A stretch of 23,430 bases of DNA from a virus, in IMG/VR virus record IMGVR_UViG_3300027262_000072, positions 1 to 23,430 of that record, one strand, 5' to 3'. Positions 2,277 through 22,782 of this stretch are shown one piece after another (position 1 is the stretch's first letter; each line of letters starts with the position of its first letter). The notes below the pieces were generated by a model that saw only the letters and a program-made list of their open reading frames with translations, did no database searches and was not told where the DNA came from. Position numbers and translations under genes: made by a program.

Positions 2277-2279
2277 GGT

Positions 2280-4766: not shown

Positions 4767-4775
4767 GGCGTTTGC

Positions 4776-5203: not shown

Positions 5204-5233
5204 GGGGGCTCCTTTGGGGCTGGAGGGTGAGGG

Positions 5234-5740
5234 CTAGACGCCAAGGTTGGCGTTGACGTCGGCCCAGAGGTCTTCGCCGTGGATGCGGCAGATCCGGGCC
5301 TCGATATCGACCTCGCAAAGTTCTTCGCCTGCGACGACGCACCGGTAATAGGTAAGCTGGGACACATATTCGGGAGAGCCGGTGGCATTGTCGCCGCCGA
5401 GCGAGCCCATGCCGAACTTGGTGAAAAGACCGCGCGTGAAGATCTCGACCGGAATGTTCGCCGCACCGTCGGTCGCATTCGCCCGAAGGGTGAACGGCGT
5501 ACCGGGCTTGCCGAGCGTGCGCGTCATGTCGTTGGTCACGCCGTCCGAGCTGAGCGTCATCTCCATGTCCTCGATCTTGTGCATGGAGATGGGGACGCCG
5601 CCGCCAAGACCGCCGCCTCGGGCGCGCTCGGTCACGAATTCGAGGTCGGGCAAGGTCGCCTCGCCGAAGCGACCGGCCATGCCGACGCCGTCGATGAACC
5701 CGACTGCATCAGTGACTTTTTTGGGAAGCTGGATAGCCAT
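5234..5740 (-). CDS. FII: Major tail tube protein (P2 gpFII-like)
   Basis: 168 aa (P2 FII: 172). Phage major tail tube protein family; polymerises into the inner tube through which DNA passes. Seen: the N-terminal IQLPKKVTDAVGFIDGVGM segment (about 3-21), the glycine-rich loop around 42-48 and the beta-rich body ending in a short acidic strand. The ribosome site AAGGAG is seven bases before the ATG. It is directly downstream of the sheath gene, 22 bases apart, the universal arrangement in contractile tails. Confidence 0.92.
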   Translation of the reverse strand: MAIQLPKKVTDAVGFIDGVGMAGRFGEATLPDLEFVTERARGGGLGGGVPISMHKIEDMEMTLSSDGVTNDMTRTLGKPGTPFTLRANATDGAANIPVEIFTRGLFTKFGMGSLGGDNATGSPEYVSQLTYYRCVVAGEELCEVDIEARICRIHGEDLWADVNANLGV

Positions 5741-5762
5741 GGTCTATCTCCTTGAGGAAAGC

Positions 5763-6926: not shown

Positions 6927-7056
6927 GTGTTGGCTCCTGAAATAGTCGGTGTGAGGCTTGGCGGCATTGCCTCGCCGAAGGGATGTGGCAGGGCCACCAT
7001 TGCGAATGAGCCGTGGCGGTTATACCCTGACAGTTTGTCGAGCTTGCAGGCGACGG
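6927..7056. other. Intergenic spacer upstream of the sheath gene
   Basis: 130 bases without a credible gene, one of the few gaps in the operon. It contains the imperfect dyad CTGACAGTTTGTCGAG (7028-7043), which resembles the perfect palindrome CTGACAGTTGTCAG at 17395-17408 in front of the protease gene. It may carry a late promoter or activator site for the sheath block; no convincing -35/-10 pair was identified. Confidence 0.35.
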
Positions 7057-7767
7057 TCACTTGGTGTCGCCGTTATTGACTTCGGTGGTTTCTGTGGCTT
7101 TCGGCTTCTGGCTTTCGATGAAGGCGAGGATGGCGGCTTGGAGCTCGACGCGCAGATCATCGAGCAAGCCGATCAATCCAAGATAGGCGGTCTCCGCAGC
7201 TATCCGAGCCGCAGCTTTCCCGCGAAAATCACCGGCAGTGAAGAGCAGTGCGCGCTTGAGGGTTGCCGCTTCCATGATGTCCTCGGCAATGATGACATGA
7301 GGCTCGACGCCTTTGCCAGCGGCCCTCGAATTGACGTCGTCCCGATTGGAGTCGGTGATCATCACATTGATGGCCTGAATGGCAGCGACCCGAATGGGCG
7401 GTGCGACTGTCGTGTCGAGCACCTCGTAGGCCGCCATCCGCTTCTCGGCATATTCGAGCTTTCGTGTCTCCGATGGGTTGGTGTCCATCAGATTAGTGGC
7501 GCGCTCGTATTCGGCTTCGACGACATCTCCAAAAGCCTGGCGGATGGATTCCATGTCCCAGAGGTGATCCTTGACCACCGTGCCGGAAAGCCAGGCGTCG
7601 CCGACCGCCGGGTCGTTCACCTCGAACGTCCGGGCCGCGCTCACAAATCTCGACTTCGTTTCGAGGTCGATATCGTCGTAAGAGGATCCGACAGCGATGA
7701 TAATACCGTCGCCGTTGTTGGGATCCCGATTGATATCGAAGACGGCCAGATGGACTACGTTGCTCAT
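7057..7767 (-). CDS. Unknown protein at the end of the tail-fibre cassette
   Basis: 236 aa from the ATG at 7767, chosen because GGGAG lies seven bases upstream and the ATG overlaps the stop of the preceding gene (TGATG); a longer in-frame extension to 7857 lacks such support. I do not recognise a family. The N-terminal third reads like a beta-sheet domain (HLAVFDINRD, DGIIIAVGSS), the rest is helical with alanine-rich amphipathic segments (AAYEVL, RVAAIQAIN, AARIAAETAYLGLIGLLDDL) and a charged, disordered tail. In P2 the place between fibre H and sheath holds the fibre-assembly gene G; a fibre chaperone or structural role is inferred from position only. Confidence 0.6.
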   Translation of the reverse strand: MSNVVHLAVFDINRDPNNGDGIIIAVGSSYDDIDLETKSRFVSAARTFEVNDPAVGDAWLSGTVVKDHLWDMESIRQAFGDVVEAEYERATNLMDTNPSETRKLEYAEKRMAAYEVLDTTVAPPIRVAAIQAINVMITDSNRDDVNSRAAGKGVEPHVIIAEDIMEAATLKRALLFTAGDFRGKAAARIAAETAYLGLIGLLDDLRVELQAAILAFIESQKPKATETTEVNNGDTK

Positions 7768-8387
7768 CAAAGTGCTCCCACGCGGATACCCGCCGTTAGA
7801 TAGACCGTCTGGGCGTCCCAGCCGCTCATGCTTGATGTCGGATAGCTCGTCGGCCAACTCGTGAAGCCGCTCCCGTCACGCGCCAGGCAGGTATCCGACC
7901 GGTATTGGGACAGTGTCTTGAAGGCGTCGTTGTGCTGCGGTCGCGCTATCCAGTCCGGTCTGTTGGTGTAGACAACGATTTGCGCCGTCTGACGCAGGGC
8001 GAGATAGTAAGTCTCATAGGCCGTGAGGGTTACGCTGTTGCCGAGCGGCTCGACATGGCCGTGTTCAAAATCGGCAGTGCCGGTCTTTCTGTTCGCTTCG
8101 GCGATGCGGCTAAAGCCGAAGTCGTAGAGCGCCATGTCGACCGTGCCGGTCGCGCCATTGCCCCGGTCATGCCACAGGCCGTCGACAGGCAAATCGACAT
8201 CCACCACCAGTGGCATGAACAAGACTGTGTTGACCGCACTGGAATTATCAGTGCCGCGCCCTTGAGAGGGCTCGCCCTCGGAATCGAGGAGCTCGCCGGT
8301 GCGGTAAACTTTACCGTGCTCGCTCACGACCAGTCCGGGTCGACTGAATTCCCGGCCGTCACCGCCTGGAAGCCGAAGGCGGCTCAC
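7767..8387 (-). CDS. Unknown protein, probable tail-fibre-associated structural protein
   Basis: 206 aa. No family recognised. The sequence is beta-rich and aromatic (FMPLVVDVDLPVDGLW, VTLTAYETYYLALR, a tryptophan/tyrosine/serine-rich C-terminus around 175-190), which is common in phage fibre or receptor-contact domains. It overlaps its neighbours at both ends (ATGA with the upstream gene, TGATG with the downstream gene), so the three genes between H and the sheath form one coupled cassette. A structural role at the tail tip is an inference from position and composition. Confidence 0.6.
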   Translation of the reverse strand: MSRLRLPGGDGREFSRPGLVVSEHGKVYRTGELLDSEGEPSQGRGTDNSSAVNTVLFMPLVVDVDLPVDGLWHDRGNGATGTVDMALYDFGFSRIAEANRKTGTADFEHGHVEPLGNSVTLTAYETYYLALRQTAQIVVYTNRPDWIARPQHNDAFKTLSQYRSDTCLARDGSGFTSWPTSYPTSSMSGWDAQTVYLTAGIRVGAL

Positions 8388-9169
8388 GAGTCTTCTCTAA
8401 GGTAGGTCATGGAAAAATAGATCTGGAAGCTGGACGAGAGATCCGCTTGCGACATCGAGAAGAGGCCACCCGAGTTTCCGGCGCTCGACTCATAAAGAAG
8501 AATGCCATCCGTACCCGCCAAGCCGTAGCCGAAGATGGACACGGAGTCCGAATTGGAGGCCAGCCCTGAGAAGAAGGCGACCGACATGCCGGTCGCGTGA
8601 GCCCCACCGGAACGTATAGGAAAAGGGAGGCCCCCAACGCGGAGAGGGCCGGTTGCTCCAGTGAGGTTGACGCGCAGGCGCCCAAACACGGTCACGAGAT
8701 TTCCGACCCGCCCCCATGAACCCGACTGAATATTATAGGATGCGGCACCTGCAGCGTTCGAGCCTTCCAGCGAAGGGAACCAGACACCCTCCTCGTATTT
8801 AAGGTCGGGTAGATCCTTGCCCGCGAACTCCAGGGTGGCTCCTATATGCACGGTGGCGGGCACCTGCGACGAGCGCATATAGAGCTTGTCGCCCTCCTTC
8901 AGCAGGATGGCTGGATCTGCCCCGACGGAAACGGACTCGTTTGGCCGCACGCCGATGATCGGTGCATCCCGGTTGAGATTGCGCTGCGCGGTCGTGTTGG
9001 AGTTCGCGCCGACCACCGTGAGCTCGATCGTCGCCGATGCCGCGCCTTGGTGCCAGACTGTTCCGCGAAGGTGCTCGATGACGCCGGGGCGCTCGCTCGC
9101 GTCCTCGATCAGAGTCCAGGTATCTGCCTGCGTGATTTGAGTGGTGATGCGATCAATGGTCGAGCTCAT
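8384..9169 (-). CDS. Tail fibre-like protein (probable receptor-binding part)
   Basis: 261 aa from the ATG at 9169, which overlaps the stop of H (ATGA) and has GGAA about eight bases upstream. The N-terminal half (about 20-115) is a beta domain with ILLKEGDKLYMRSS, the C-terminal half contains GSWGRVGNLVTVFGRLRV (about 148-165) and LRVGGLPFPIRSG, a pattern seen in the C-terminal domains of many phage tail fibre proteins. It directly follows the short H-like fibre protein, so it probably completes or extends the fibre. Receptor recognition is inferred, not shown. Confidence 0.65.
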   Translation of the reverse strand: MSSTIDRITTQITQADTWTLIEDASERPGVIEHLRGTVWHQGAASATIELTVVGANSNTTAQRNLNRDAPIIGVRPNESVSVGADPAILLKEGDKLYMRSSQVPATVHIGATLEFAGKDLPDLKYEEGVWFPSLEGSNAAGAASYNIQSGSWGRVGNLVTVFGRLRVNLTGATGPLRVGGLPFPIRSGGAHATGMSVAFFSGLASNSDSVSIFGYGLAGTDGILLYESSAGNSGGLFSMSQADLSSSFQIYFSMTYLREDS

Positions 9170-9690
9170 GAGAATTTCCACAGGTCTTGGATGGGATGAA
9201 CAAGTCGGGCGAGATCCGCTTGGGTCGCGAAGTTTGCGGTTTCGCGGTCGACATATTCGCGCGTTGCGAACGCTCGTGACGGATCGACAAGCACCTGCAC
9301 GGAGTCGGCGTCGGAGAATTGCAGGAGCACCGAGCCGAGAACGTCGTAAACCAGGCCGTCACCGGCGACCGGCAGTTCGATAGGCCGGATATCCCCGTAG
9401 ACGATAAGGTCGCCGTCCTGGTCGAGGATTGCGATCTGGCGGTAGGTGAAGCCGGACGCTTGTGCCGGCATATTGTATTCGACACGGATGGTATTCGGGC
9501 GGGCCGGGTCGCGCGCCTCGCCATCGATCGTCGTGCGGTAGCGCTCGCTCGGGAGGGCTGTGATGCCCGGCGTGAGCTCCGACGTGCCATCCCCGATGAC
9601 GACGGTCGACAGCGCCAGCGGCCCGGATGCAGAGGCGGCGGCAAGTTTCTGCTCGCCAATGGTCGAAAGGTGAAGAAAGAAGTCAGACAC
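9166..9690 (-). CDS. H: Tail fibre protein, P2 gpH N-terminal-domain type
   Basis: 174 aa from GTG at 9690 (GGAG seven bases upstream, GTGTCTGA overlap with gene I); TTG at 9696 is an alternative. The sequence matches the N-terminal baseplate-attachment domain of P2-type fibres: FFLHLSTIGEQKLAAA (about 4-19), VVIGDG, ASGFTYRQIAILDQDGDLIVYG (about 79-100) and the closing ATREYVDRETANFA. P2 H is about 670 aa; here the protein ends just after this domain, with no distal shaft or tip. The distal functions are presumably supplied by the next gene or genes, so the fibre is split or minimal. Confidence 0.85.
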   Translation of the reverse strand: MSDFFLHLSTIGEQKLAAASASGPLALSTVVIGDGTSELTPGITALPSERYRTTIDGEARDPARPNTIRVEYNMPAQASGFTYRQIAILDQDGDLIVYGDIRPIELPVAGDGLVYDVLGSVLLQFSDADSVQVLVDPSRAFATREYVDRETANFATQADLARLVHPIQDLWKFS

Positions 9691-10228
9691 CAGCAAGCTC
9701 CATCTTCTGGTGGATGTGCACGGTCTGCTGCAGCCCTATCCCGACAAAGGACGTGGCGTTGCCGGTGACGGCGAGCCTCAGCGACTCCAGCAGGGAATGA
9801 GCGGCTTTCGTGCGCTCGACCGACTCCGTCACGGCCAGCAGGTCTTGCCGGGTGACGCCCGTCTCGCTGGCGTCCAGGACAACCCGTAGCGTGTGCGGAT
9901 CTCCACCATACTCGAACCAGCGCTCGACCGTGGCTTCAAGACCAAACGCATTGAGGGCAAGCCTAACCGCCCCGATCGTTCCCTTGACGCGGTGAACGGC
10001 GGGGGCCGCCCCGATCACGGATCGCTTGCGCTCGACCGGCCAGTCATCGTCCCACACGTCGACCGAGCGCTCCCATGCGAGATAGGGCAAAAGGTCTTCC
10101 GGGCAGGTGCGGTAGTCCTGCAGCTCGGCAAGCGTGGCCGGCAGGGTGAAGGTACCTGCGATCGTCGCACCAAGCGCGCGCTCCAGCTCGGTCGCATTCG
10201 CCGGGAGAAGATGGTCGAGGGCCGCCAT
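9683..10228 (-). CDS. I: Baseplate protein I (P2 gpI-like, tail protein I)
   Basis: 181 aa from the ATG at 10228 (GTG at 10231 is one codon longer); P2 I has 176 aa. Phage tail protein I family, a wedge protein linking J to the fibre H. Typical features: LLPANATELERALG (about 7-20), LLPYLAWERSVDVWDDDWP (about 46-64) and HRVKGTIGAVRLAL (about 78-91). The start overlaps the J stop and the end overlaps the H start. Neighbours W-J-I-H are in P2 order. Confidence 0.9.
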   Translation of the reverse strand: MAALDHLLPANATELERALGATIAGTFTLPATLAELQDYRTCPEDLLPYLAWERSVDVWDDDWPVERKRSVIGAAPAVHRVKGTIGAVRLALNAFGLEATVERWFEYGGDPHTLRVVLDASETGVTRQDLLAVTESVERTKAAHSLLESLRLAVTGNATSFVGIGLQQTVHIHQKMELAGV

Positions 10229-11106
10229 CACGTTTCCGCAGCTAAGAGAGAGACAACGCCCGCGACCGGCACGGCATATGGATTGCTCGTCGGGCTCTGC
10301 GCAGGAGCCTGGAGCTCGACCTCGACCACACCCTCGACGTTGAGCGCAGTGATGATGTCGGTGCGCGTGATGCGTCCTCCGAAGTCCAGAGATCCTGACA
10401 GATAGCTCTCAAGTGCGGCTTGAGCGGCGGCCGTGATGAGCTGTGGTGACAAATCCACATCGATGGTGAGCGTTGCGGTCACGTCGAAAGCGACGATCTC
10501 CGGATCCTTGACCTGCACATCGGCGGAGGTCGGGATGACAAACTCGTCGTTGAGTGCAACCTCTACGGCGTCGCGGACAGTTATGGGAAGCGTGCCGTCC
10601 GCCGCGCCGATGACGTAGACAAAGACCTGCCCGGCTTCCGGTGCATCGGAACCGGTGTCCGACACGCGCGGTGAGCGCACCACGACCGAGCGCACGTCGA
10701 CATGAGCATTCTCGGCATGGAACCGGTAGGCGCCGCGCGGACCGGCTGACGAGAACCCATCGAATGCAAACCGGATGCGCTTGCGGAACTCGTCGTCAGA
10801 CTCGCCCGACAGACGGGTCAGCGGGATTTGCGCGGCGCGTTGGTCAAGCCCGTTTCCGGATGCCGTCGCCACCAAGCCGATAGCCGCGTCCTTGCGGAAG
10901 TCGTCGCGCTGGAGTGCAGCGCGATAGGCGACCAGCTGGAGCACTTTGCGCATTGGATCGCTGTTGAGCATGATGGTCTCGGCGGAGGGAGGGTGCAGTG
11001 CAGCAAATGTGTCTGCCAGATCTTGCTCCAGCGACTTCGCATCGATCGGAGCGAAGATCTCCGGCACTGGCAGAAGGGAAAGGTCTATGTCCGGAAACGC
11101 ACTCAC
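10228..11106 (-). CDS. J: Baseplate assembly protein J (P2 gpJ-like)
   Basis: 292 aa (P2 J: 302). Baseplate J family, the main wedge protein at the outer edge of the baseplate. Seen: the N-terminal helical region with YRAALQRDDF (about 61-70), the GNGLDQRAAQIPLTR stretch (about 84-98), ESDDEFRKRIRFAFD, and a repeated beta-domain half ending with the DIITALNVEGVVEVELQAP segment typical of J. GTG start overlapping the W stop (GTGA). Confidence 0.92.
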   Translation of the reverse strand: MSAFPDIDLSLLPVPEIFAPIDAKSLEQDLADTFAALHPPSAETIMLNSDPMRKVLQLVAYRAALQRDDFRKDAAIGLVATASGNGLDQRAAQIPLTRLSGESDDEFRKRIRFAFDGFSSAGPRGAYRFHAENAHVDVRSVVVRSPRVSDTGSDAPEAGQVFVYVIGAADGTLPITVRDAVEVALNDEFVIPTSADVQVKDPEIVAFDVTATLTIDVDLSPQLITAAAQAALESYLSGSLDFGGRITRTDIITALNVEGVVEVELQAPAQSPTSNPYAVPVAGVVSLLAAET

Positions 11107-13304: not shown

Positions 13305-13730
13305 TCAGAGATCCCTCATCGCACGACGGGAAAACTGGCGAGGAGTGCCGGTGGTGACCACGGGGCGAGGCCCGGAACGCTGCGAGCCGTCACGACCACT
13401 GGTCTTCAGTCCAAGTTGCGCGCGGCCTGCGCCGACATCCTTCAGCCAGGCGAGCCCGTCTTTATATCGCGTCCGCATCTCGTCGGTGAGGGCATCCGCT
13501 CCCATGTTGATATGGTAGATGGCGAGATCCACGCTCACGTCCCGCAGACGGGAAGGCACTTCTGGCAGCGGCAAGGCATGACGCACCGAAATATAGCTGT
13601 CGATCTCGTCCTTGGCTTTTTCCAGGGCGCGCACAATGCGAGCACCGTCAACGAGTCCGTCGTCGCCGACCGCACCGAACAGCACGTCCTCGCCATAGGC
13701 GGTCTCGATATCGGCGCGGGAGGCGTACAC
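13305..13730 (-). CDS. DUF1320 family protein (Mu gp36-like)
   Basis: 141 aa from a GTG at 13730 that gives the N-terminus (M)YASRADIETAYGED, matching the MYA-x-x-x-D-L start of the family; an ATG 8 codons upstream (13754) would add an extension overlapping the preceding gene. DUF1320 proteins are connector or head-completion proteins of Mu-like phages. Seen: helical protein with ALEKAKDEIDSYISVRHALPLP (about 34-55), then RDVSVDLAIYHINMG and RYKDGLAWLKDVGAG, all typical. The stop lies one base before the gpG start. Confidence 0.82.
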   Translation of the reverse strand: MYASRADIETAYGEDVLFGAVGDDGLVDGARIVRALEKAKDEIDSYISVRHALPLPEVPSRLRDVSVDLAIYHINMGADALTDEMRTRYKDGLAWLKDVGAGRAQLGLKTSGRDGSQRSGPRPVVTTGTPRQFSRRAMRDL

Positions 13731-13731
13731 C

Positions 13732-14022
13732 CTATGCGCGCTCGGAGACGGCATGGCCGGTGCGGCGCAGCTCGGCCGTGCCGGACGTGATGTCGTACTC
13801 GACGAAGAAGGAGTCGTCGGTCTTGGCGATCGCCTCGTCGGCAACCACGACCAGGCGGATGCCGGAGATGTAGGGATTGACCTCGGCTTCGGGATAGTTG
13901 TCACGCAGCTGCTTGGTCAGGCTGTCGCGAAGGTTCACGAGAAACGCGCCGTGATCGTCGCCGACAGGCTGGTCTGCGATATCGACCGCGCAAAAGGTCA
14001 GGAAGTCGTGCTGAAAGCTCAT
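13732..14022 (-). CDS. Unknown 96-aa protein between the capsid and connector genes
   Basis: Starts at the ATG at 14022 (MSFQHDF); an upstream in-frame ATG at 14067 would add a proline-rich, unlikely extension. The ribosome site is weak. The sequence is a mixed alpha/beta small protein (FLVNLRDSLTKQLRDNYPEAEV, IRLVVVADEAIAK, FFVEYDITSGTAELRRTGH). No family recognised. It lies right before DUF1320, sharing its end with the DUF1320 start, so a head-tail joining role is plausible from position only. Confidence 0.6.
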   Translation of the reverse strand: MSFQHDFLTFCAVDIADQPVGDDHGAFLVNLRDSLTKQLRDNYPEAEVNPYISGIRLVVVADEAIAKTDDSFFVEYDITSGTAELRRTGHAVSERA

Positions 14023-14091
14023 GTCATTACTCGTCGGCCAGGTCACGGGCCGGGGCGTGGGCAGCATGGGGGCGCTGCGAGGGGGCGGGAT

Positions 14092-14123
14092 GCGGGCTGG
14101 CCGTTACTGGGCGGCCAGCCCGC
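14092..14123. terminator. Perfect 12-bp inverted repeat (possible terminator or attenuator)
   Basis: GCGGGCTGGCCG pairs perfectly with CGGCCAGCCCGC across an 8-base loop, in the 144-base gap between the gp35-like gene (ends 14167) and the 96-aa gene. Such a GC-rich stem could end or weaken transcription after the capsid block, or protect the 3' end of the capsid mRNA. There is no T-run on either side, so it is not a textbook intrinsic terminator. Confidence 0.5.
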
Positions 14124-14166
14124 GAACACCCGGATCCCCCAAGAGCCGAGTGACGGTGGACGCGTC

Positions 14167-14586
14167 CTAAGCGGGGACGTCCTTTTCTGCTGCGGCGAGA
14201 GCGAACTTGGCGGTTTCGACCTCGGCTTCGGCGCTGGAGATGGCGGCGGCTTGCTCGTCGGTCGAAGCCTCGCCAGCGTCTTCGGTCAGAAGGGTGACAT
14301 TGGCTTCGGCATCGTCGAGAGCGGTCTTCGCCGCTGCGATCGCTTTCTTCTGCTTGGCTGTCGGCCCCTTGACCTTCTTGCCTTTGGAGCCGCTCGCCTT
14401 CTTGGTTTTTGCGGGCGGCGCAGGTTCGGCCTCCAGAACGGTGACGCGAGGATCCGCTTCAAGGGAAGCGATAGCCTCTTCGCTCAGATCGCTTTCGTCG
14501 ATCTCGACGACACGACCTCCGGAGAGGTCAAGCCCGCCGCGCGTGTAGCGCGTGCGGACGTTGGCCTTGATGGTCAGGGCGGTCAT
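14167..14586 (-). CDS. Mu gp35-like protein (FluMu gp35/HI1506 type N-terminus) with coiled-coil tail
   Basis: 139 aa. The N-terminal half (KANVRTRYTRGGLDLSGG, then a DESDLSEEAIASLEADPRVTVLE helix-strand pattern, about 7-53) resembles the small domain found in proteins next to the major capsid gene of Mu-like phages. A lysine-rich linker (about 58-85) and an alanine/glutamate-rich helix (85-139) follow. It starts 10 bases after the capsid stop and shares that transcript. Function not known; a minor head or capsid-associated role is inferred from position. Confidence 0.6.
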   Translation of the reverse strand: MTALTIKANVRTRYTRGGLDLSGGRVVEIDESDLSEEAIASLEADPRVTVLEAEPAPPAKTKKASGSKGKKVKGPTAKQKKAIAAAKTALDDAEANVTLLTEDAGEASTDEQAAAISSAEAEVETAKFALAAAEKDVPA

Positions 14587-14596
14587 CCGGCCCTAC

Positions 14597-15490
14597 CTAT
14601 GCCGCGAGGCGCGGAGCGACGATGAGGTCGAATGCGCCCTTGAGCGTATTGTAGTCGGTGCCGAGCTTGTCCGCGTTCATGAGCTCTTCGCCCTTCGAAC
14701 GGTTGGACGGATCGACCAGGAGAACACCCGGCTGGACGCCGAGGACTTCGCCGCTGTGGTCCTTGAAGGACTCCATGGCCTCGCGCGCCGCTTTGACATT
14801 GGCGGCGGTGAGCGGAGCCTTGGAGCCGAAGGCGAGCTGCCAGAAACCGAAACCGGCATTGCCGCGATGGCGCGTGCCGTAGATGTATTCGTCGCGCATG
14901 AAGCCCGCCTCGGAAGTCGCGGCATCATTCATGGCCGTGAATTCCACAGGGGTGCGGCGCTGGTAGATGAAGGGGCGCAGCGGGGCCGAGGTGTCGAGCA
15001 GGTACCAGGCTGCATCCGTTCCGGCCTGCATGTTCGATACTGACTCTTCCTTGCCGTCCGGGCCGACCGGATGCTCGGCATCGAAGAAGTTCTGGCCGTC
15101 AAAGCACTGCGAGGACCAGCCGAGAGGGATGAGGTCGAAGATGCGCTTGTCGGGATCCTTCGCGGCCTTGTCCGCGAGCTGGCGGGCCATCGTGGTGTAA
15201 TGGCCGAGCTTGTCGTCCTCGATGTCCGTGCGCTTAACGCCGATCGTGCCTTCAAACATTTTGTTCTCGATACGGTAGCCGGTGTCGGCCAGGCGATTGA
15301 TCTGGCGATCGCCGATCCATTCGCGGATGCCGGGCATGTCGCGCAGCCAGGCATAGTTTTCGCCCGAGCTCGTCGAAGGCACGATCGTCGCGATGCGCTC
15401 GAAAAGCGGATCGACGCCGTCGAAGACGCCTTGGAACTCGGAGCGCAAGCCAGCGCCGATAAGCTCGATATTCTGGGGAGTGACGTCCAT
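14597..15490 (-). CDS. T: Major capsid protein (Mu gpT-like)
   Basis: 297 aa (Mu T: 296). Mu-like gpT family, the main shell protein. Start ATG at 15490 is preceded by AAGGAG seven bases upstream; the reading frame is open further upstream but without a ribosome site. Seen: the N-terminal helix (TPQNIELIGAGLRSEFQGVF, about 4-23, given in part), YAWLRDMPGIREWIGDRQI (about 46-64), the NKMFEGTIGVKRTDIEDD region (about 75-92), HPVGPDG, and GVLLVDPSNRSKGEELMNA near the end, all conserved in T. Preceded by the decoration-like gene and the protease/scaffold, followed by gp35. The symbol follows Mu and is distinct from P2 T, the tape measure, elsewhere in this window. Confidence 0.95.
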   Translation of the reverse strand: MDVTPQNIELIGAGLRSEFQGVFDGVDPLFERIATIVPSTSSGENYAWLRDMPGIREWIGDRQINRLADTGYRIENKMFEGTIGVKRTDIEDDKLGHYTTMARQLADKAAKDPDKRIFDLIPLGWSSQCFDGQNFFDAEHPVGPDGKEESVSNMQAGTDAAWYLLDTSAPLRPFIYQRRTPVEFTAMNDAATSEAGFMRDEYIYGTRHRGNAGFGFWQLAFGSKAPLTAANVKAAREAMESFKDHSGEVLGVQPGVLLVDPSNRSKGEELMNADKLGTDYNTLKGAFDLIVAPRLAA

Positions 15491-15531
15491 GTGTGGACTC
15501 CTTGGTCTTGGCGCGGCTGCGCGTGTTTGGG

Positions 15532-15945
15532 TTAGGTTCCGGTGACAGGGGTGAAGGCGATCCACACACCATCTTCGTCGAGATCCACGACCGTGCCCGC
15601 GCGGGAGCGGTCGGTGGCATCGGCGGAGACCGTATGGTCATCGAGGATGAAGGCGTCCGAGCCGATGTCGCCGCGATCGAGCGGGGCGACCGCATCGTTG
15701 TCGTAGCGGAAGGCCCGGCTGACGGTGACGGTGACGGAGATGTCGCCGCTATCGCCGGTCGCATTGTTCACACCGGCATCGGCGTGACCGGCAACGGTCA
15801 GGCCAGCGGCAGCGGTGCCGGGTCGCGCGAACCCATCGGTATCGAGCACGACGATCGCGCCTTTGTGAATAGTCGCGCCCGCGAGAACGGGGTGCGCGAC
15901 GAGGGACAGCTCACGGGATGTGATGCGGCGGTCAGCACTAAGCAT
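15532..15945 (-). CDS. Capsid decoration/cement-like protein (DUF2190-like)
   Basis: 137 aa from ATG 15945, chosen because GGAG lies eight bases upstream and the ATG overlaps the stop of the preceding small gene (ATGCTTAG); an ATG seven codons upstream (15966) is the longer alternative. The protein is beta-rich with the pattern HPVLAGATIHKGAIVVLDTDGFARPG (first third), GLTVAGHADAGVNN, VSRAFRYDNDA and a closing GTVVDLDEDGVWIAF. This layout matches small proteins located before the major capsid gene in many phages and thought to be capsid cement proteins. No enzyme motif is seen. The decoration role is inferred from family resemblance and position. Confidence 0.7.
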   Translation of the reverse strand: MLSADRRITSRELSLVAHPVLAGATIHKGAIVVLDTDGFARPGTAAAGLTVAGHADAGVNNATGDSGDISVTVTVSRAFRYDNDAVAPLDRGDIGSDAFILDDHTVSADATDRSRAGTVVDLDEDGVWIAFTPVTGT

Positions 15946-16180
15946 ATCCACGGCTCCAGCGGTCATTGAGTTGGATCCAGAACGGGCGGGAAGGGATGTC
16001 GACGATTTCGTGGAAGCCCATTTGGAATGCCGTCACGCCCGGACTGAGTCCGAACATGCTCGAATTCACCCCAGTACCGTTGCTTGGTTTAAAGCTCACC
16101 GCCGCGACGGCGAAAGCCGCGCATGCGCAGAGGGCAAACAATGACGAGTTGATGAAATAGCCGCGCGATGAATTACGCAT
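15938..16180 (-). CDS. Small membrane protein of unknown function inside the capsid operon
   Basis: 80 aa. The start is well supported: AAAGGAG lies seven bases before the ATG, and the gene overlaps the protease stop by 8 bases and the decoration gene start by 8. The sequence has a short N-terminus (MRNSSRGYF), one hydrophobic helix (about 10-30, LFALCACAAFAVAAVSF) that could be a signal anchor, then a 50-residue outside or inside part with several aromatic residues. No family recognised, and a membrane protein is unexpected between protease/scaffold and decoration genes. It may be a moron (for example superinfection exclusion or lysis-related) or a capsid factor; there is no evidence to choose. 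Confidence 0.65.
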   Translation of the reverse strand: MRNSSRGYFINSSLFALCACAAFAVAAVSFKPSNGTGVNSSMFGLSPGVTAFQMGFHEIVDIPSRPFWIQLNDRWSRGYA

Positions 16181-16712
16181 TGGACTTCTCCTTTGTGGTG
16201 AGGGCTTCGGGCTTCAGACCCATGGCGGTTGCGACCTTGACCTGCTCGGCAGTCGGGCCGTCGCCTTGGCGGGCGGCCGTGGCGATGCGCTTGTCGGGAG
16301 ACGTCGCGACGACCTTCGGGGCGATGCGCGCCATCTCCTTGAAGTTTTCGAGGCCCTTCGTGGTCGAGCACATTGCGATGTACTGCTTGCGCGAATTGGG
16401 TGCGATGCGCGCGGCAGCGATCGCCTGGTCGACAATAGCCTCGACCTCGACCGTGTCGGTCGCGGCGTTGTCCCCGCCCTCGACCTCTTCGAGCTTGTCC
16501 ACGACCGCGTCGTAGTCGGCGCGCGGGACATACTTCGAGAGATCCACGACGACGTCGTCCTGCTCGTTGTCAGGATCGTCAACGGACGGCGTGTCCTCAT
16601 CTTCTACGGGATCCGCTTTGGCTGCGGAGGCAGCGGCAAGCACGTCCTCGATGGGCGCGTCTTCGGCGAGCCCGAGCGATGCGCGTAGGGCTTTGAGTTG
16701 TTCCTCGTTCAT
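16173..16712 (-). CDS. Z: Nested in-frame scaffold protein (Mu gpZ-like)
   Basis: 179 aa, the C-terminal part of the protease frame, starting at ATG 16712 (MNEEQLKALRASLG). An excellent ribosome site, ACGGAG with GGAG six bases before the ATG, sits at this internal position, which would be wasteful unless it is used. In Mu the scaffold Z is made from an internal start in gene I, and lambda Nu3 is nested in C. The product is acidic and helical (DVLAAASAAKADPVEDEDTP, about 21-40), as scaffolds usually are, and ends with a basic region that could contact the capsid protein. Separate expression is predicted, not shown. Confidence 0.7.
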   Translation of the reverse strand: MNEEQLKALRASLGLAEDAPIEDVLAAASAAKADPVEDEDTPSVDDPDNEQDDVVVDLSKYVPRADYDAVVDKLEEVEGGDNAATDTVEVEAIVDQAIAAARIAPNSRKQYIAMCSTTKGLENFKEMARIAPKVVATSPDKRIATAARQGDGPTAEQVKVATAMGLKPEALTTKEKSNA

Positions 16713-17357
16713 GAGGCTCTCCGTTTCTGTGGTGGGGTTGGGGTCGTCGGATGATTTGGATTTGGCGGTCGCGGTCGCTGGGACGGCCGGGACGCGCGAG
16801 GCGACGGCAGGCATGGTCATTGCGGGCTGGTTGACGAGGGCGACGGACGCGAAGCCGAGGATCTCCATGGTCTCCTCGTCGAACTGGAAAGCGGGCGAGA
16901 GATAACGGTAGTGGCGACGCGAGAGCAGCTCCTGGCCGATATCGGTCCACTCGATGCGGCCCCAGATCGCGCCTTCACGCACTTCCATCTCCTCGACCCA
17001 GCCATTCGAAGGTGGATCGAAGTCGAAGAGGACGCTGTCGTGATTGATGTCGACGGCGATCTTGATCTCGTCGGCATTGTATTCGGTGGCGAGCATTTCG
17101 GGGTTCGAGTTCTTGTACTCGCGGTCGTCACGCAGAGAGAGGACTTTGCCTGCGGGCAGGATCATGTTCCAGCTCGTGGAGTCGTCGCCGACTGGTGCCA
17201 CCGCCTCGCCAGCGGGGATGCCGCGAGCGAGGGCGAGATTGGAGGGAAGCTCGGCGCGCGGCTTTGCATTCGCGACGACGCGGCGTGGCTCTCTCGATGC
17301 GAGGGCGATTGCGATGGCGGATGCGCCGCGACGCATGGTTTGGGGGAGCGATGTCAT
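16173..17357 (-). CDS. I: Prohead protease/scaffold (Mu gpI-like)
   Basis: 394 aa from ATG 17357 (Mu I: 361); a GTG at 17381 with GAGG five bases upstream is a plausible longer start, while the frame remains open to 17618 without support. Mu-like I protease family: cleaves scaffold and itself during prohead maturation. Seen, numbered from the ATG: VDINHDSVLFDF (about 102-113, candidate catalytic H106), the GAIWGRIEWTDIGQELL segment (about 129-145) and RYLSPAFQF (151-159, candidate serine S154), then a helical, acidic C-terminal half (about 200-394) that serves as scaffold. That half has its own internal start, as in Mu I/Z. The upstream spacer contains several dyads. Confidence 0.88.
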   Translation of the reverse strand: MTSLPQTMRRGASAIAIALASREPRRVVANAKPRAELPSNLALARGIPAGEAVAPVGDDSTSWNMILPAGKVLSLRDDREYKNSNPEMLATEYNADEIKIAVDINHDSVLFDFDPPSNGWVEEMEVREGAIWGRIEWTDIGQELLSRRHYRYLSPAFQFDEETMEILGFASVALVNQPAMTMPAVASRVPAVPATATAKSKSSDDPNPTTETESLMNEEQLKALRASLGLAEDAPIEDVLAAASAAKADPVEDEDTPSVDDPDNEQDDVVVDLSKYVPRADYDAVVDKLEEVEGGDNAATDTVEVEAIVDQAIAAARIAPNSRKQYIAMCSTTKGLENFKEMARIAPKVVATSPDKRIATAARQGDGPTAEQVKVATAMGLKPEALTTKEKSNA

Positions 17358-17673
17358 GGGCCGGGTGTGGCAGGGGGCCACCCCCGCCTCACCACTGACA
17401 GTTGTCAGCACCCAAACCGGAAAAAATCCGGGGGATGCATGGGCACTATGACAGCCGTACAGCGCCGTTAGCGACAAAAGTGGGGCCCTGATAGCGAAAA
17501 TTCTGTCAGGGCCACGTATGGCGCTCAAATGATGCTTGAGTGCGGCGTTAGAGGACGGTCGCGGATGGATTTGAGCAAAGTCTGCCGTTCGCAGGTGGAA
17601 TTCCGTGCAAATGGCCACCAGATCGCAGCACAGGACGGCTGACGACGCACTAGGTGCATGTCAAGGTCTGCCC
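17358..17673. other. Dyad-rich regulatory spacer between the protease gene and the divergent plus-strand gene
   Basis: 316 bases with no credible gene. It holds a palindrome CTGACAGTTGTCAG (17395-17408), an AT-looped CCGGA/TCCGG hairpin (17417-17431), an 8-bp stem GGCCCTGA/TCAGGGCC with a 14-base loop (17484-17513) and CTCAA/TTGAG (17524-17540), plus a GGGGG/CCCCC pair just before the protease start. This is the only place where transcription diverges, so promoters for both directions are expected here; I could not define -10/-35 elements with confidence. Confidence 0.5.
17484..17513. repeat. Inverted repeat with 8-bp arms
   Basis: GGCCCTGA (17484-17491) and TCAGGGCC (17506-17513) flank an A/T-rich loop. 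On the minus strand the stem is followed four bases later by TTTT, so it could be a weak terminator for transcription arriving from the MuF side, or an operator. Confidence 0.45.
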
Positions 17674-17928
17674 ATGGCCAGACAACCTCGATCCAAAATT
17701 CCGATGCCGGACCTCGGCAATGCTTCCGAGGTGCTCCAGAGGGCAAGCGCGGTCTGTGATTCCATCCGCCAAGCCCAGGGGTGGCCCGCAGGAAGTCTTG
17801 CGGGCGATGTTCGGGATGGCATCAACAGGCTGATGCGGGAACTCAGGTCCGACCCGACGCATCCCGAGCATCAGAACTGGATCGAAGAAAACCGGAAATC
17901 GATGGATCCAACGTCGTGGCACCGGTGA
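17674..17928 (+). CDS. Unknown 84-aa protein, the only plus-strand gene
   Basis: Start ATG 17674, with AAGG seven bases upstream; the longer open frame to 17605 lacks a ribosome site. The sequence is a plausible soluble helical protein: a basic N-terminus (MARQPRSK), the helix LGNASEVLQRASAVCDSIRQ (about 13-32), RDGINRLMRELRSD (about 46-59) and a tryptophan-containing C-terminus (HQNWIEENRKSMDPTSWH). No family recognised. It is convergent with the MuF gene (113 bases apart) and divergent from the protease gene, so it has its own promoter and is a typical moron. Because the neighbouring MuF protein ends in a nuclease-like domain, an immunity or regulatory role is a testable guess only. Confidence 0.55.
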   Translation: MARQPRSKIPMPDLGNASEVLQRASAVCDSIRQAQGWPAGSLAGDVRDGINRLMRELRSDPTHPEHQNWIEENRKSMDPTSWHR

Positions 17929-18024
17929 TAATCGACAGAGGTTGAATGTGGTCGGCTTTTCGCCTATATCGACTAGGAGGCCGGAGTCATTACGGTGAGC
18001 TGGACATTGCGTTCCACCCGGGAG

Positions 18025-18041
18025 GGCCGTCCCGGACGGCC
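18025..18041. terminator. GC-rich hairpin between convergent genes
   Basis: GGCCGTCCCGGACGGCC: a 6-bp stem GGCCGT/ACGGCC with a 5-base loop, starting directly after the MuF stop codon and 97 bases after the plus-strand gene. The plus-strand side is followed by a pyrimidine-rich stretch (TCATTTCACTCTCTTTCCC), so it may end the plus-strand transcript and possibly also the MuF transcript. Confidence 0.5.
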
Positions 18042-19253
18042 TCATTTCACTCTCTTTCCCTTGATCTTGCGCCGGTTGCGTTCCGTTGTCTTGTAGTAGC
18101 TCGACTGCCAGATCTCATTGCGTTCGAGCAGCACCTTCAGGACAAGCCGATACCAGCTTCCCTCGACGTTCTTGAGCACATCGAGCGTCCGGTCGCCGTC
18201 CCAATAGATTTCGGAGTCATCGAAGATATCCGGAAGATAGCTGTAGGCGACATTCGGCGGATATGAACCGGGCGCTTTGAAGCTGGGGTTGTGACGCGAG
18301 ATCGTATCGGCCGAGACCATGACGACTCTCTGCGTGCTCCCGATCCTGTCGCCAAGATCCTTGGGCAGGACGGTTGTCGCTACGACCGCCGAGCCCCTGT
18401 AGAGACCAGTGCGGCCTTCGAGAAACTCCTGAAACGCATCGTCTGCCAGCTGGTCGCGAAGCACGGCGCGGACAAGACCTATGTTTTCCGGCGTCGCGAT
18501 CGCCTGGATCCTTTCGGCAAACTGCCCAGCCGTCCGCCTGATGGCGTTGCGCCCGACATTGCCAGACCAGCCAGGGTCGATGCCAGCGGGCACCCGTCGT
18601 TCTTCGCCGGTGCGAGGATTGACGTACCGCTTTGTCGGGATGTCCGGTGCGGGTGCGCCGGTATAGCCGCGTCGTGTAGCTTCCCTTTCCGAGATCTGGC
18701 GCACTCCGCATTTGCAGCCCCACCCGTTAGGAAAATACCATTCGTCCCAGAAGGGGTCGTCGGCCCGCAAGATCAGTCCTTCCTTATCCAGATGCAGCGG
18801 CCGGTGCTCTTCCGAAGGCCCGAGGGTGTAGATGAGATAAGGCAGGAGCTGCTTGTTGGCCTGGATGCGCTCCCATTGCCCGACCGCGTAGGACGTCCGG
18901 ACATTGGCGTTGTAAATCGTCCGCAGCCTACGCGGCGAGCCAAGCCGTGCCTGGACGATCTCGCCCGTCCGCGGGTCGGTGACCTCCTTGACTCCCCACC
19001 ACCCGCGCTTGCGCAGCATCGGTTCGATGTCGGCCTTCCACTGTTCGAACGGCACACCGTCGCTAACGGCCCGTCTCAAGCTGTCGCGCATGTCCCGCAG
19101 CAGGTCGACCTGCGTCATCTTGGCGATGACAAATTTATGGGCGTGCTCTTCGGGGGCGATCTCCTCGAACGCGAAGCTCGGCACCAGGCTCTTGCGAGCG
19201 AGATACTCCCGCACGGTGAGCGGAGCTTCCGGCGTGAAGGTGTAGTCGTCCAC
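18042..19253 (-). CDS. F: MuF minor head protein with C-terminal nuclease-like (PBECR2-type) domain
   Basis: 403 aa. Residues 1-240 are the Mu gpF/SPP1 gp7 head morphogenesis domain: LRTIYNANVRTSYAVGQWERI (about 110-130), RPLHLDKEG (151-159), then DEWYFPNGWGCKCGV (170-184) with the Cys pair C180/C182. MuF proteins sit on the portal inside the head and may be ejected with DNA. Residues about 285-400 form an extra domain: VVMVSADTISRH (310-321), YLPDIFDDSEIY (339-350), WYRLVLKVLLE (367-377) and SSYYKTTERN (384-393). This matches the phage Barnase-EndoU-ColicinE5-RelE-like nuclease type 2 pattern found at the end of many phage head proteins, with H321 and S385 as candidate active residues. Family of the C-terminal domain is recognised from motif pattern only. 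It starts two bases after the portal stop. Confidence 0.85.
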   Translation of the reverse strand: MDDYTFTPEAPLTVREYLARKSLVPSFAFEEIAPEEHAHKFVIAKMTQVDLLRDMRDSLRRAVSDGVPFEQWKADIEPMLRKRGWWGVKEVTDPRTGEIVQARLGSPRRLRTIYNANVRTSYAVGQWERIQANKQLLPYLIYTLGPSEEHRPLHLDKEGLILRADDPFWDEWYFPNGWGCKCGVRQISEREATRRGYTGAPAPDIPTKRYVNPRTGEERRVPAGIDPGWSGNVGRNAIRRTAGQFAERIQAIATPENIGLVRAVLRDQLADDAFQEFLEGRTGLYRGSAVVATTVLPKDLGDRIGSTQRVVMVSADTISRHNPSFKAPGSYPPNVAYSYLPDIFDDSEIYWDGDRTLDVLKNVEGSWYRLVLKVLLERNEIWQSSYYKTTERNRRKIKGKRVK

Positions 19254-19255
19254 GA

Positions 19256-20785
19256 CTAGTTCCGGGTGTTGCCGGCAGCACGCCCCATCATGGCCGTGTC
19301 GCGCAGGCGGGTGGCCAATGCCCCGGCTTCCATGTCCTCGATCGCGCCCTCAAGATTGGCTTGAGCCTCGTCATAGGAGGATGCGGTATCGATCGCGCGG
19401 CGCACGGGATCGACGATAGGCCCCATGACCTCTTCCCAATCATCGAGCACGTCATCGATGATGCCCTCCACGAGCTCTTCGCCGCTTTCCTTACGCGCGC
19501 GTGCCGTGTCGAGGCGAGGCGCGGGTCCACTACCTGTCGCCGGTGAGGGCAGTTCGAGTACCTCCTCGCCTTCCGCCGCTTGCGGCAAACCCCAGCGTTC
19601 GTGAACAAACGACCTCGGGACGCGCACTCCCATGGACGTGAAGTCCTTGATCGCGGCGCGGAGCTCTTCGAGGTCTTCCTTGTCGAGCACCGGCGCGACG
19701 AGTTTTGGATATATCAGGCGCGGGCCGAAGTTCAGATCCACGACTGGACGAATGAGGTACATGTTGATGGACGTGCAGATCTTGCGCACATCCGCACGCT
19801 TGATGTCAGTCCGCACATCGTCGTGCACTTCGGCCTGCGACTTCGAAGAGCCGTCGTCTGCCGTCATCGTCTGCCCGAGGACAGCTTTGCTGATGCGTTT
19901 GTCGCAATAGGCCGCGAGACGCTCATATGCCGTGCCATCCGATGTGCCTGCCGAGTTGACAAACTCCAGCTTCATGGAGTCGGGGATGGCGGCGGCCGCA
20001 TCCGTGCCGATATTCTTGAGGGCGCGCACGAGCTCGTTGATCTGCTCTTCCGTCGCGGACGGACCATAGCGGCCGACGCGGACCGGCTGGCCGTAGGTTT
20101 CGACGTATCCAACCCAGTCCTTGAGGGTGAAGTTCTGGAACAAATACGTCCAGGCGACGAACCGGGCGAGAGCCGAGCGGTGCGGATCCCCGCTCTTGAG
20201 TTTCGACCAGTGGACGAGAAACTTGTATGGCGCGAGCTCGTGGCCATCCGGCTCCTCGCTATCGCGCAGGCGCAGCAGACGCCGGTCGTCGGCGTCCAGC
20301 TGGAAGGCGCGGGGAGTGATGTGCCTGAACTCGACGGGAAACCACTTGCCGCTCGTAGTGTGCCAGATAATCTCCTGGACGGAATAGCCTTTGCCGAGCG
20401 CATCGAGCATGTCTTCGACGAGGGTCGGGAAGTGCGGGCTGTCCACCATGCCGGAGATGAACTTCGCGATCTCCTTGTCTTCATCGGAGTCGCCGCCCGG
20501 CTTGATCGAATAGGCGCATCCCTCGACGGCGCGCTTGCGGGTGCCGAGCACGGATCCGTAGTGCTCGTTCTTCTCCTCGGCCTCTTCGGCAAAGACCATG
20601 AAGCGGTCGAGCCGCCCTTCGCTATGCTCGCGCAGCATCTTCGCCAGAGAGTGAGGGGTAAGTGGCCCGGCCGAGCTCGACCAGAGCTGGCGAATGCTGC
20701 CCGTTGATTTCGCGACCAGAGCGGAGGGGCCTTCTTTCGGAGCCGCGAGCTTGTTGCCGTAGATGTCGATGAGATCTGCCATCAT
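19256..20785 (-). CDS. Portal protein (Mu gp29-like, DUF935)
   Basis: 509 aa (Mu gp29: 512). DUF935 portal family: dodecameric ring at the head vertex through which DNA enters and leaves. Seen: the N-terminal YGNKL segment, the EEKNEHYGSVLGTRKRAVEGC stretch (about 70-90), the DALGKGYSVQEIIWHT segment (about 128-143), AYERLAAYCDKRISKAVLGQTMT (about 285-307) and a proline-rich C-terminal part ending in a helical tail. GGAG lies shortly before the start; the double ATG at 20785/20782 leaves one codon of uncertainty. It lies ten bases after the large terminase. Confidence 0.93.
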   Translation of the reverse strand: MMADLIDIYGNKLAAPKEGPSALVAKSTGSIRQLWSSSAGPLTPHSLAKMLREHSEGRLDRFMVFAEEAEEKNEHYGSVLGTRKRAVEGCAYSIKPGGDSDEDKEIAKFISGMVDSPHFPTLVEDMLDALGKGYSVQEIIWHTTSGKWFPVEFRHITPRAFQLDADDRRLLRLRDSEEPDGHELAPYKFLVHWSKLKSGDPHRSALARFVAWTYLFQNFTLKDWVGYVETYGQPVRVGRYGPSATEEQINELVRALKNIGTDAAAAIPDSMKLEFVNSAGTSDGTAYERLAAYCDKRISKAVLGQTMTADDGSSKSQAEVHDDVRTDIKRADVRKICTSINMYLIRPVVDLNFGPRLIYPKLVAPVLDKEDLEELRAAIKDFTSMGVRVPRSFVHERWGLPQAAEGEEVLELPSPATGSGPAPRLDTARARKESGEELVEGIIDDVLDDWEEVMGPIVDPVRRAIDTASSYDEAQANLEGAIEDMEAGALATRLRDTAMMGRAAGNTRN

Positions 20786-20795
20786 GCGCTCCGTG

Positions 20796-22271
20796 TCAGT
20801 ATGCGCCGCGCATGCTTTTCAGACCGGAGGTCGTCCGCACGCGGGGTTTGGAATAATCGGGATCGGGGTCGTGGGTGTTACGGCCCGCCGGGTGGTAGGC
20901 GTATTCGACCTCGCCGCCCTCGGCCGCATAGATCGCCAGTCCCAGCGCCCAGAAGCGGTCAGCGTGCGACTCCGCGCCGGTCGGAGCGATATAGCGGGGC
21001 AGGCCTCCGTTCTTGGAAACCACCTTCTTGACCGAGTGCAGATCCGCGCGGAGCTTCACATCCCCCGGGCGGATTGCGAGGCGACGGTCCTGGAAGGCTT
21101 TCTGCATGCACTGCACGATGTTGTGCTTGCTGGACTGAGTGAATACGATCCCCTGAACGCGGCTCGCGCCGTAGCGGCCTTCCGCATCCTCGACCGGTTT
21201 CGCGCCGATCGACGTCTCGTCCATGGCTATGCGCCGCATCCGGTACCGCTCCACACAGGCATCGAGCAGGCGGTCCTGCTCGGCGAAGGAAGCCTTGCGC
21301 CGGTCGATGGACTCGCGTTCCCAGAGACGACCGCCGACATCTTCGAGGACAGTGAGCACCCACAAGTCATTACCCTTGCCTGCGATATCGTTGCCGCCAT
21401 AGGTCGCGCCGCCCCGGAAACCTGCAGGGTCGCCCGCCCCGTCTTCTTCGCAGGAGATGATATCGTCCCAAGGCAGAGCGGGGCTATCGCCGTCCGCCCA
21501 TTCGAGCTCGTATTCTTGTGCCCACGCGTCTTCGTCGCCGAGACCGGCACGCAGCTCGTGGGGGTCGATGTCCAGACCCTGCTCGACGGCGTCCCATATC
21601 GTCACCGAGTGTTTGGACCAAGTGTCGTCATCGGCCGTCATGAGCTCGTGGAACTTGTTGCTCTTGCCGTTCGGCGTTGAGATCACCCGGATCTTGTAGC
21701 CGCGCGTGATGCACGGATAGAGCGCTTTCCAGATATCGCGCGAGTCCGCATGGAAGGCGAACTCGTCGAGAAGCACATTTGCCGAGAAGCCGCGCGCGGT
21801 GTCGGGGTTTGCGGGAAGGGCAGTGATGCGGGCTCCGCAAGGAAGTTCCACTTCGTAGGATTTATAGCTCACCTTCTCGGTCGAGCCGTCGTCATTGGGG
21901 CGGTCGAAGGCGTAGTCGACTTCGACCAGCTCGGGCGGCTTCGCGTTCTTCAGGATCGAGCGGTAGAGGATGTAGTACGCCTTGAGCATCGGAATGACGT
22001 TCTTGCGCATGTACTCGACAGCCTGGCGCTCGCCCCGCGAGAGCACGACCCAATGGGTCTTCGTGCCCGCGATCTCGTGGTCGATGACGTCCTCGACAAT
22101 CTCGGCGGCCGTCCCAAACGACTTGCCTGCCTGTCGGGACATGTTGCCGATCTTGAACCGCGACTTATCCTCTAGCCATGCCTTCTGGTACGGTAGGAAG
22201 TCGATGAGCTGCTCGGTGAATTCCGGGCGCTCGCTGGCCTTCATAGTGGGATGATTGGGGCGGAGAACCAT
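20796..22271 (-). CDS. Terminase large subunit (Mu gp28-like)
   Basis: 491 aa from ATG 22271, directly after the small terminase stop (TGACATG); a GTG at 22292 would overlap that gene and a later ATG at 22244 is also possible. ATP-driven DNA packaging motor with headful nuclease. Numbered from the chosen start: adenine-type motif YQKAW (28-32), Walker A SRQAGKS (45-51), Walker B VLLDEF (166-171), coupling motif STPNGK (198-203) and, in the nuclease half, GGNDIAGKGND (about 292-302) and MDETSIG (about 350-356) with the conserved acidic residues. All ATPase and nuclease motifs are intact. Confidence 0.95.
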   Translation of the reverse strand: MVLRPNHPTMKASERPEFTEQLIDFLPYQKAWLEDKSRFKIGNMSRQAGKSFGTAAEIVEDVIDHEIAGTKTHWVVLSRGERQAVEYMRKNVIPMLKAYYILYRSILKNAKPPELVEVDYAFDRPNDDGSTEKVSYKSYEVELPCGARITALPANPDTARGFSANVLLDEFAFHADSRDIWKALYPCITRGYKIRVISTPNGKSNKFHELMTADDDTWSKHSVTIWDAVEQGLDIDPHELRAGLGDEDAWAQEYELEWADGDSPALPWDDIISCEEDGAGDPAGFRGGATYGGNDIAGKGNDLWVLTVLEDVGGRLWERESIDRRKASFAEQDRLLDACVERYRMRRIAMDETSIGAKPVEDAEGRYGASRVQGIVFTQSSKHNIVQCMQKAFQDRRLAIRPGDVKLRADLHSVKKVVSKNGGLPRYIAPTGAESHADRFWALGLAIYAAEGGEVEYAYHPAGRNTHDPDPDYSKPRVRTTSGLKSMRGAY

Positions 22272-22272
22272 G

Positions 22273-22782
22273 TCAGCCGAAGCCCATGACACGCTTGGCC
22301 TCTTCCATTGCGTCTTTCGTCCAGTCCCCTTTTTCGACAGCCGCCTCGGCGTTCTTGAGCATCTCCTCGCGGATCTCTTTCTGGAGCCGTTTCTGCGAGA
22401 TCGATGCGGTCGCGATATCCTTGATGACGCGACCGAGCTTCACCGGGTCGACCGTGTTGGGGTCGATCTCGAAGTCCTGCATGTATTCGTAGAGGGTCGC
22501 CTGATAGGTGCGCAGGATCCCGTCGGTCATGGCTCCGTCATCGTCCGGGAACATCGTGCGCAGATACTCGGCCTGCGCCGTTGCCGCGCGGATCTTCTCG
22601 ACCTGCGCCTGCAGCTTCTTGCCGTGCGAGTGAACCGCCGACTTCGAAATCTCGAAACCCTGCTCGCCAAGCCATTTGGACAGGGCACGGTAGCCACCGA
22701 ACCCATTGTCCTTGATGCGGCGGTTCAGCTCCGCCTGCTGCACGGCGTCCAGCTCGGACTCGATCTTCGACGGAGCGGGCAA
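22273..22782 (-). CDS. DUF3486 protein, small terminase subunit (Mu gp27-like)
   Basis: 169 aa with a TTG start at 22782, the first start codon in the open frame, 10 bases after GGGAA. Mu gp27/DUF3486 family, the DNA-recognising small terminase. Seen: a helix-turn-helix-like part GYRALSKWLGEQGFEISKSAVHSHGKKL (about 30-57; family pattern L..WL...G..iS.SAv), then a long helical region (60-165) for oligomerisation. The gene lies directly upstream of the large terminase, as in Mu. Confidence 0.88.
   Translation of the reverse strand: MPAPSKIESELDAVQQAELNRRIKDNGFGGYRALSKWLGEQGFEISKSAVHSHGKKLQAQVEKIRAATAQAEYLRTMFPDDDGAMTDGILRTYQATLYEYMQDFEIDPNTVDPVKLGRVIKDIATASISQKRLQKEIREEMLKNAEAAVEKGDWTKDAMEEAKRVMGFG

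What the first reader, a model, noticed from the sequence alone, without database searches (positions are those of the whole stretch)
18042..18395. MuF head protein fused to a toxin-type RNase-like domain
Beyond the normal MuF core, about 115 C-terminal residues show the pattern of the PBECR2-type (Barnase/EndoU/ColicinE5/RelE-like) nuclease: SADTISRH, YLPDIFDDSEIY, WYRLVLK and SSYYKTT. Since MuF proteins lie inside the head and can be ejected with the DNA, this could be an effector delivered into the host or aimed at competing phages. The domain call rests on motif pattern, the effector role on knowledge of similar polyvalent head proteins.
Basis: partly seen in the sequence, partly recalled or inferred. 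Interest (0 to 1): 0.65.

Follow-up and report, generated by a model that had tools for sequence, protein, structure and literature searches.

The report
Exchangeable RNase-like tail on phage MuF
A Mu-like phage's internal head protein carries a C-terminal domain built like bacterial RNA-cutting toxins; this fusion was already described for phage Mu's relatives, but close relatives of this phage have swapped only this domain again and again, with no neighbouring immunity gene.

Summary
The MuF gene (18042-19253, minus strand, 403 aa) has a MuF core plus a separate C-terminal domain (residues ~266-403, 18045-18458, slightly longer than stated). AlphaFold2 models it well (pLDDT 89.5), and its best solved-structure neighbours are nearly all BECR/RelE-type RNase toxins (BrnT, RelE, YafQ, YoeB, HigB, CdiA-CT), at middling Z. 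H321 and S385 exist, and K373 and S/T385 are among the best-conserved tail positions. The family label needs correcting: PBECR2 is not matched; PBECR3/MuF-C is nearer, below its curated cut-off. The architecture is known: Iyer et al. 2017 reported a C-terminal PBECR (MuF-C) domain in Mu gp30 itself, inactive there, and predicted active RNases in orthologues. The domain is not obligatory: 25 related MuF proteins end within 70 residues of the core. What I add is population evidence: MuF cores up to 99-100% identical carry tails only 26-38% identical, with breakpoints near codon 272 and identity resuming 29-158 bp after the stop. So the cassette is this domain alone, without an immunity ORF of normal size. 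This fits a packaged effector better than an immunity-paired toxin. RNase activity and ejection remain inferred.

The parts
18042..19253 (-). MuF-type minor head protein gene, 403 aa, GTG start
   Evidence: Pfam PF04233 E 3.3e-14; PHROG_220 E 1.3e-76
18702..19091 (-). conserved MuF core domain (residues 55-184)
   Evidence: Pfam match; invariant columns across relatives
18045..18458 (-). C-terminal BECR/PBECR-like (MuF-C type) domain, residues 266-403
   Evidence: AF2 pLDDT 89.5, pTM 0.85; VIA-align neighbours BrnT, RelE, YafQ, YoeB, HigB, CdiA-CT; weak PBECR3 match
18291..18311 (-). helix ADTISRH ending in H321, candidate catalytic His (residues 315-321)
   Evidence: DSSP on model; alignment
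18135..18137 (-). K373, conserved basic residue (K/R in 62 of 68 tails)
18099..18101 (-). S385, conserved Ser/Thr of the late core strand (61 of 68 tails)
17358..18041 (-). gap between MuF stop and the likely protease start; no convincing downstream immunity gene
   Evidence: codon statistics of the ORFs here differ from the phage genes; no family or convincing relative found; no terminator or promoter match
19256..20785 (-). Mu-type portal protein (context)
   Evidence: PF06074 E 9.5e-103
16173..17357 (-). Mu-like protease I (context; start inferred)
   Evidence: PF10123 E 1.8e-41

Best explanation
The C-terminal ~135 residues of this MuF protein are a MuF-C/PBECR-type domain with the BECR fold, most likely a metal-independent endoRNase using H321, K373 and S385. 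The MuF core targets a few copies into the procapsid near the portal, and the domain enters the host with the phage DNA to act on host RNA or on an RNA-based defence at the start of infection. Among close relatives it is a replaceable cassette exchanged by recombination at about codon 272, without a partner immunity gene. Steps: fold supported by prediction; cassette exchange and purifying selection shown by sequence in relatives; RNase activity, packaging, ejection and target inferred.
For: AF2 pLDDT 89.5. VIA-align: 14 of the top 15 PDB rows are BECR/RelE-superfamily RNases, led by BrnT Z 6.1 (74 aligned of 77 residues, 3.0 A). BFVD matches include phage minor capsid and polyvalent proteins. 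Weak PBECR3 match covering H321 to S385; profile-profile to PBECR3 E 3.5e-5; MuF relative L182 at 27.4 bits to PBECR3. Conserved K373 and S/T385. Tail dN/dS about 0.04-0.36 in nearly all pairs, so maintained, not decaying. Exchange: L006/L007 core 100%, tail 26%; L024/L041 core 99%, tail 29%; L044/L006 core 83%, tail 97%; core/tail dS 0.028/0.37 for L044-L109 and 0.50/0.019 for L044-L006; DNA breakpoints. Swap partners are the same superfamily (hhalign E 5e-19). Literature: SPP1 gp7 is targeted inside the procapsid by the portal and aids infection (PMC6316719); Mu gp30 has a PBECR domain (PMC5512222).
Against: Structural Z scores are middling (best 6.1) and Foldseek alone gave no PDB hit below E 0.2. 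The window tail is below the PBECR3 cut-off (14-15 against 30 bits). 14 of 68 tails lack a helix His, and Mu's own domain is reported inactive, so the domain need not be catalytic. H321 is not at the majority His position. No virion proteomics or ejection data for this phage or its close relatives.
Confidence: 0.55

Rival explanations
1. The domain keeps the BECR fold but is non-catalytic in this lineage: an RNA- or DNA-binding module that helps hold or pilot the packaged DNA, in the way RNA binding was proposed for Mu gp30.
For: Iyer et al. call Mu's domain inactive and suggest RNA binding; 14 of 68 tails lack a helix His; no immunity gene is needed.
Against: K373 and S/T385 are strongly conserved across tails of very low overall identity, and the window retains His, Lys and Ser.
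Confidence: 0.25
2. Classical MuF polymorphic toxin: a lethal C-terminal nuclease protected by a small downstream immunity protein, used against competitors or superinfecting phages.
For: MuF toxins with immunity proteins are established (PMC5576092; Apk2, PMC12226406); tails are exchangeable under a conserved N-terminus.
Against: Exchange cassettes end 29-158 bp after the MuF stop in the closest pairs, too short for an immunity gene of normal size; the window's downstream ORFs have codon statistics unlike the phage genes and no convincing relatives.
Confidence: 0.12
3. A purely structural extension of the head protein with no effector role.
For: MuF proteins are head components; Mu gp30 has a version reported inactive.
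Against: 25 related MuF proteins lack it and no separate copy is found nearby; some carry other domains, including HExxH-bearing ones; it is exchanged and diverges much faster than the core.
Confidence: 0.08

Closest known systems
Phage Mu gp30 (gpF) MuF-C domain (Iyer et al. 2017, PMC5512222; Pfam PF18819)
   Same: Same MuF core plus C-terminal PBECR architecture and the same gene neighbourhood; the tail profile built here matches Mu gp30 (E 1.8e-5 in a 26-sequence set)
   Different: Mu's copy is reported inactive; the window keeps His, Lys and Ser. The window's own tail does not match PF18819.
PBECR3 (Pfam PF18812)
   Same: BECR fold; PBECR3 members have a helix 'RH' like the window's 'SRH' and end in a comparable late strand
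   Different: Window scores 14-15 bits against a cut-off of 30; classical members retrieved here mostly lie in longer reading frames.
MuF polymorphic toxins (Jamet et al. 2017, PMC5576092; Apk2, PMC12226406)
   Same: MuF N-terminus with variable C-terminal domains
   Different: Those usually have a downstream immunity ORF; none travels with this domain in the closest pairs.
Ct_MAD, C-terminal MuF-associated domain of proteobacterial phages (PMC5576092)
   Same: Same position and phage group; probably overlaps this family (inference)
   Different: Left without function there; its profile was not available to test.
RelE/BrnT/YoeB/HigB toxins
   Same: Predicted fold
   Different: Stand-alone toxin-antitoxin proteins, with no detectable sequence similarity here.

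Membership tests
Phage_Mu_F (MuF) head protein | PF04233 match above cut-off | tested here: met
   54 bits against 29.6
Phage_Mu_F (MuF) head protein | Position between portal and protease/capsid genes | tested here: met
PBECR2 (PF18810) | Profile match | tested here: not met
   no match at E 10 in the record; hhalign E 0.24
PBECR3 (PF18812) | Profile match above cut-off of 30 bits | tested here: not met
   14-15 bits for the window; relative L182 27.4 bits
BECR / phage-BECR superfamily | BECR fold: helix followed by a four- or five-strand sheet | tested here: met
   AF2 model and VIA-align neighbours; best Z only 6.1, but 14 of 15 top rows are BECR/RelE toxins
[quoted passage not shown]
   H321 and S385 in the window; the His is at a minority position in the family
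BECR / phage-BECR superfamily | Metal-independent endoRNase activity | not testable with these tools
   needs biochemistry
MuF-C (PF18819) | Profile match | tested here: not met
   not listed for the window tail up to E 10; a few relatives match, best 1.7e-6
MuF polymorphic toxin | Exchangeable C-terminal domain under a conserved N-terminus | tested here: met
   shown in close relatives, not for the window itself
MuF polymorphic toxin | Cognate immunity gene directly downstream | tested here: inconclusive
   none travels with the exchanged cassette; the window's 684-bp gap holds no convincing gene, but short or distant immunity genes cannot be excluded
MuF polymorphic toxin | Toxicity | not testable with these tools
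   needs expression experiments

The most novel reading that the evidence does not exclude
The MuF tail of Mu-like phages is a hypervariable, packaged anti-defence RNase: repeated exchange of the domain alone, without immunity genes, reflects an arms race with variable host RNA targets (for example crRNA or other defence RNAs) rather than killing of competitors.
Probability: 0.2. Interest if true: 0.7.

Novelty: new member of a known kind. Interest (0 to 1): 0.4.

Why it matters
The architecture was predicted in 2017, including for phage Mu, but I found no report that tests the function of this MuF tail. Natural phage pairs with nearly identical DNA around the gene and different tails (L006/L007, L024/L041) are ready-made comparisons. 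The lack of a travelling immunity gene argues that not every exchangeable MuF tail is an immunity-paired toxin.

Tried and rejected
PBECR2 assignment: rejected. Sequence search of PDB: nothing meaningful. Search for the tail alone in viral contigs: no confirmed relative, because tails diverge faster than the core. Downstream ORFs 17605-17928 (+) and 17650-18045 (-) as immunity genes: no family, no convincing relatives, codon use unlike the phage genes. Short MuF proteins being split genes: no separate tail ORF in 25 loci. The second AF2 model, of the L007 tail (pLDDT 84), gave no clear PDB neighbour (best Z 4.2, CdiA-CT at 3.7, RelE at 2.8); its relation to the window family rests on hhalign. 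No PADLOC match.

Full report
What is there. The window is a 23,430-base viral record with a Mu-type head module and a contractile tail module, its recognised phage genes on the minus strand. The gene at 18042-19253 encodes a 403-residue MuF protein between a Mu-type portal (19256-20785) and a Mu-type protease (16173-17357, start inferred). The MuF core is residues 55-184.

The tail domain. Tails of 67 relatives (alignment A2) gave a confident AlphaFold2 model for window residues 266-403: pLDDT 89.5, pTM 0.85, with helices followed by four late strands. Foldseek against PDB was weak (best E 0.21), but its top rows already include RelE and HigB toxins. VIA-align ranks BrnT first (Z 6.1), then RelE, YafQ, YoeB, HigB and CdiA-CT toxins, 14 of the top 15 rows. 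Such Z values are middling; the consistency of the list is what carries the argument. The best viral matches include phage minor capsid and polyvalent proteins. Helix ADTISRH ends at H321; K373 lies near the end of a strand; S385 lies in the late strand.

Residue conservation. Across 68 tails with low identity, K373 is K/R in 62, position 385 is S/T in 61, position 320 is K in 51, and a His is in the helix segment in 54; 46 have all of His, K/R373 and S/T385. The window's H321 is three to four residues upstream of the majority His. PBECR3 members retrieved here have His at both places, so H321 can be an equivalent catalytic residue, but this is inference.

Which family. PBECR3 is the nearest Pfam family: window E 0.02-0.035, below cut-off; profile-profile E 3.5e-5, probability 72%; relative L182, a MuF protein, 27.4 bits. 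Iyer et al. [quoted passage not shown] The tail profile reaches Mu gp30 (E 1.8e-5 in a small set). So the finding is a member of an already described architecture.

Not a universal element. Of 165 complete related MuF ORFs, 109 match the tail profiles. Twenty-five stop within 70 residues of the core, and no separate tail ORF exists at those loci. Others carry different, longer tails, some with an HExxH motif.

Cassette exchange. Identity of core and tail is uncoupled: L006/L007 100% and 26%, L024/L041 99% and 29%, L004/L006 99% and 38%, but L044/L006 83% and 97%. In DNA, L006 and L072 (the L007 contig) are 98.8% identical up to the breakpoint near codon 272 and 97.5% identical again from 99-126 bp after the stop; other close pairs resume 29-158 bp after it. 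Synonymous divergence agrees: core 0.028 and tail 0.37 for L044-L109; core 0.50 and tail 0.019 for L044-L006. Tail dN/dS is about 0.04-0.36 in nearly all pairs, so tails are under purifying selection. The swapped tails remain one superfamily (hhalign E 5e-19). The window's own tail is lower in GC (0.57) than its core (0.63), in keeping with, but not proof of, a similar origin.

No immunity gene. Jamet et al. [quoted passage not shown] Here the exchanged unit leaves no room for one of normal size, and the window's 684-bp gap has no convincing coding sequence. Very short or distant immunity genes cannot be excluded.

How it most likely works. By analogy with SPP1 gp7, which the portal targets inside the procapsid and which improves infectivity (PMC6316719), a few MuF copies would be packaged and could enter the host with DNA, where the domain cuts or binds RNA. 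Fold and exchange are supported here; packaging, ejection and catalysis are inferred.

Verdict. Observation confirmed, interpretation partly supported, known kind. The clean exchange without immunity is the part worth pursuing.

Noticed in passing
window 17358-18041: 684-bp gap between MuF and the protease; Mu has its annotated gyrase cut site just upstream of its protease gene (L015). Relatives also keep a gap here (median 338 bp with a long tail, 219 bp with a short one). No sequence match to the relatives was found.
   Followed up: partly
window 17605-17928 (+): 107-aa ORF opposite to the head operon with no family and no convincing relative; codon use unlike the phage genes.
   Followed up: partly
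L123, L125, L010 (MuF C-termini): Related MuF proteins carry longer unrelated tails with HExxH motifs, probably metallopeptidase-like.
   Followed up: no
window 662-11106 and 13305-22782: Mu-type head genes (gp27, terminase, portal, MuF, protease, gpT, gp36) joined to a contractile tail module with sheath, baseplate J and P2 I-type proteins.
   Followed up: no
L140 and L141: A 525-aa ORF lies between a short MuF gene and the protease in this BD1-7 clade genome.
   Followed up: no
L002, L006, L028, L041, L070, L117: Tails with 'YGxKF' or 'EGDKF' in place of the helix His keep K373 and S/T385: a probable His-less subfamily, possibly non-catalytic.
   Followed up: partly
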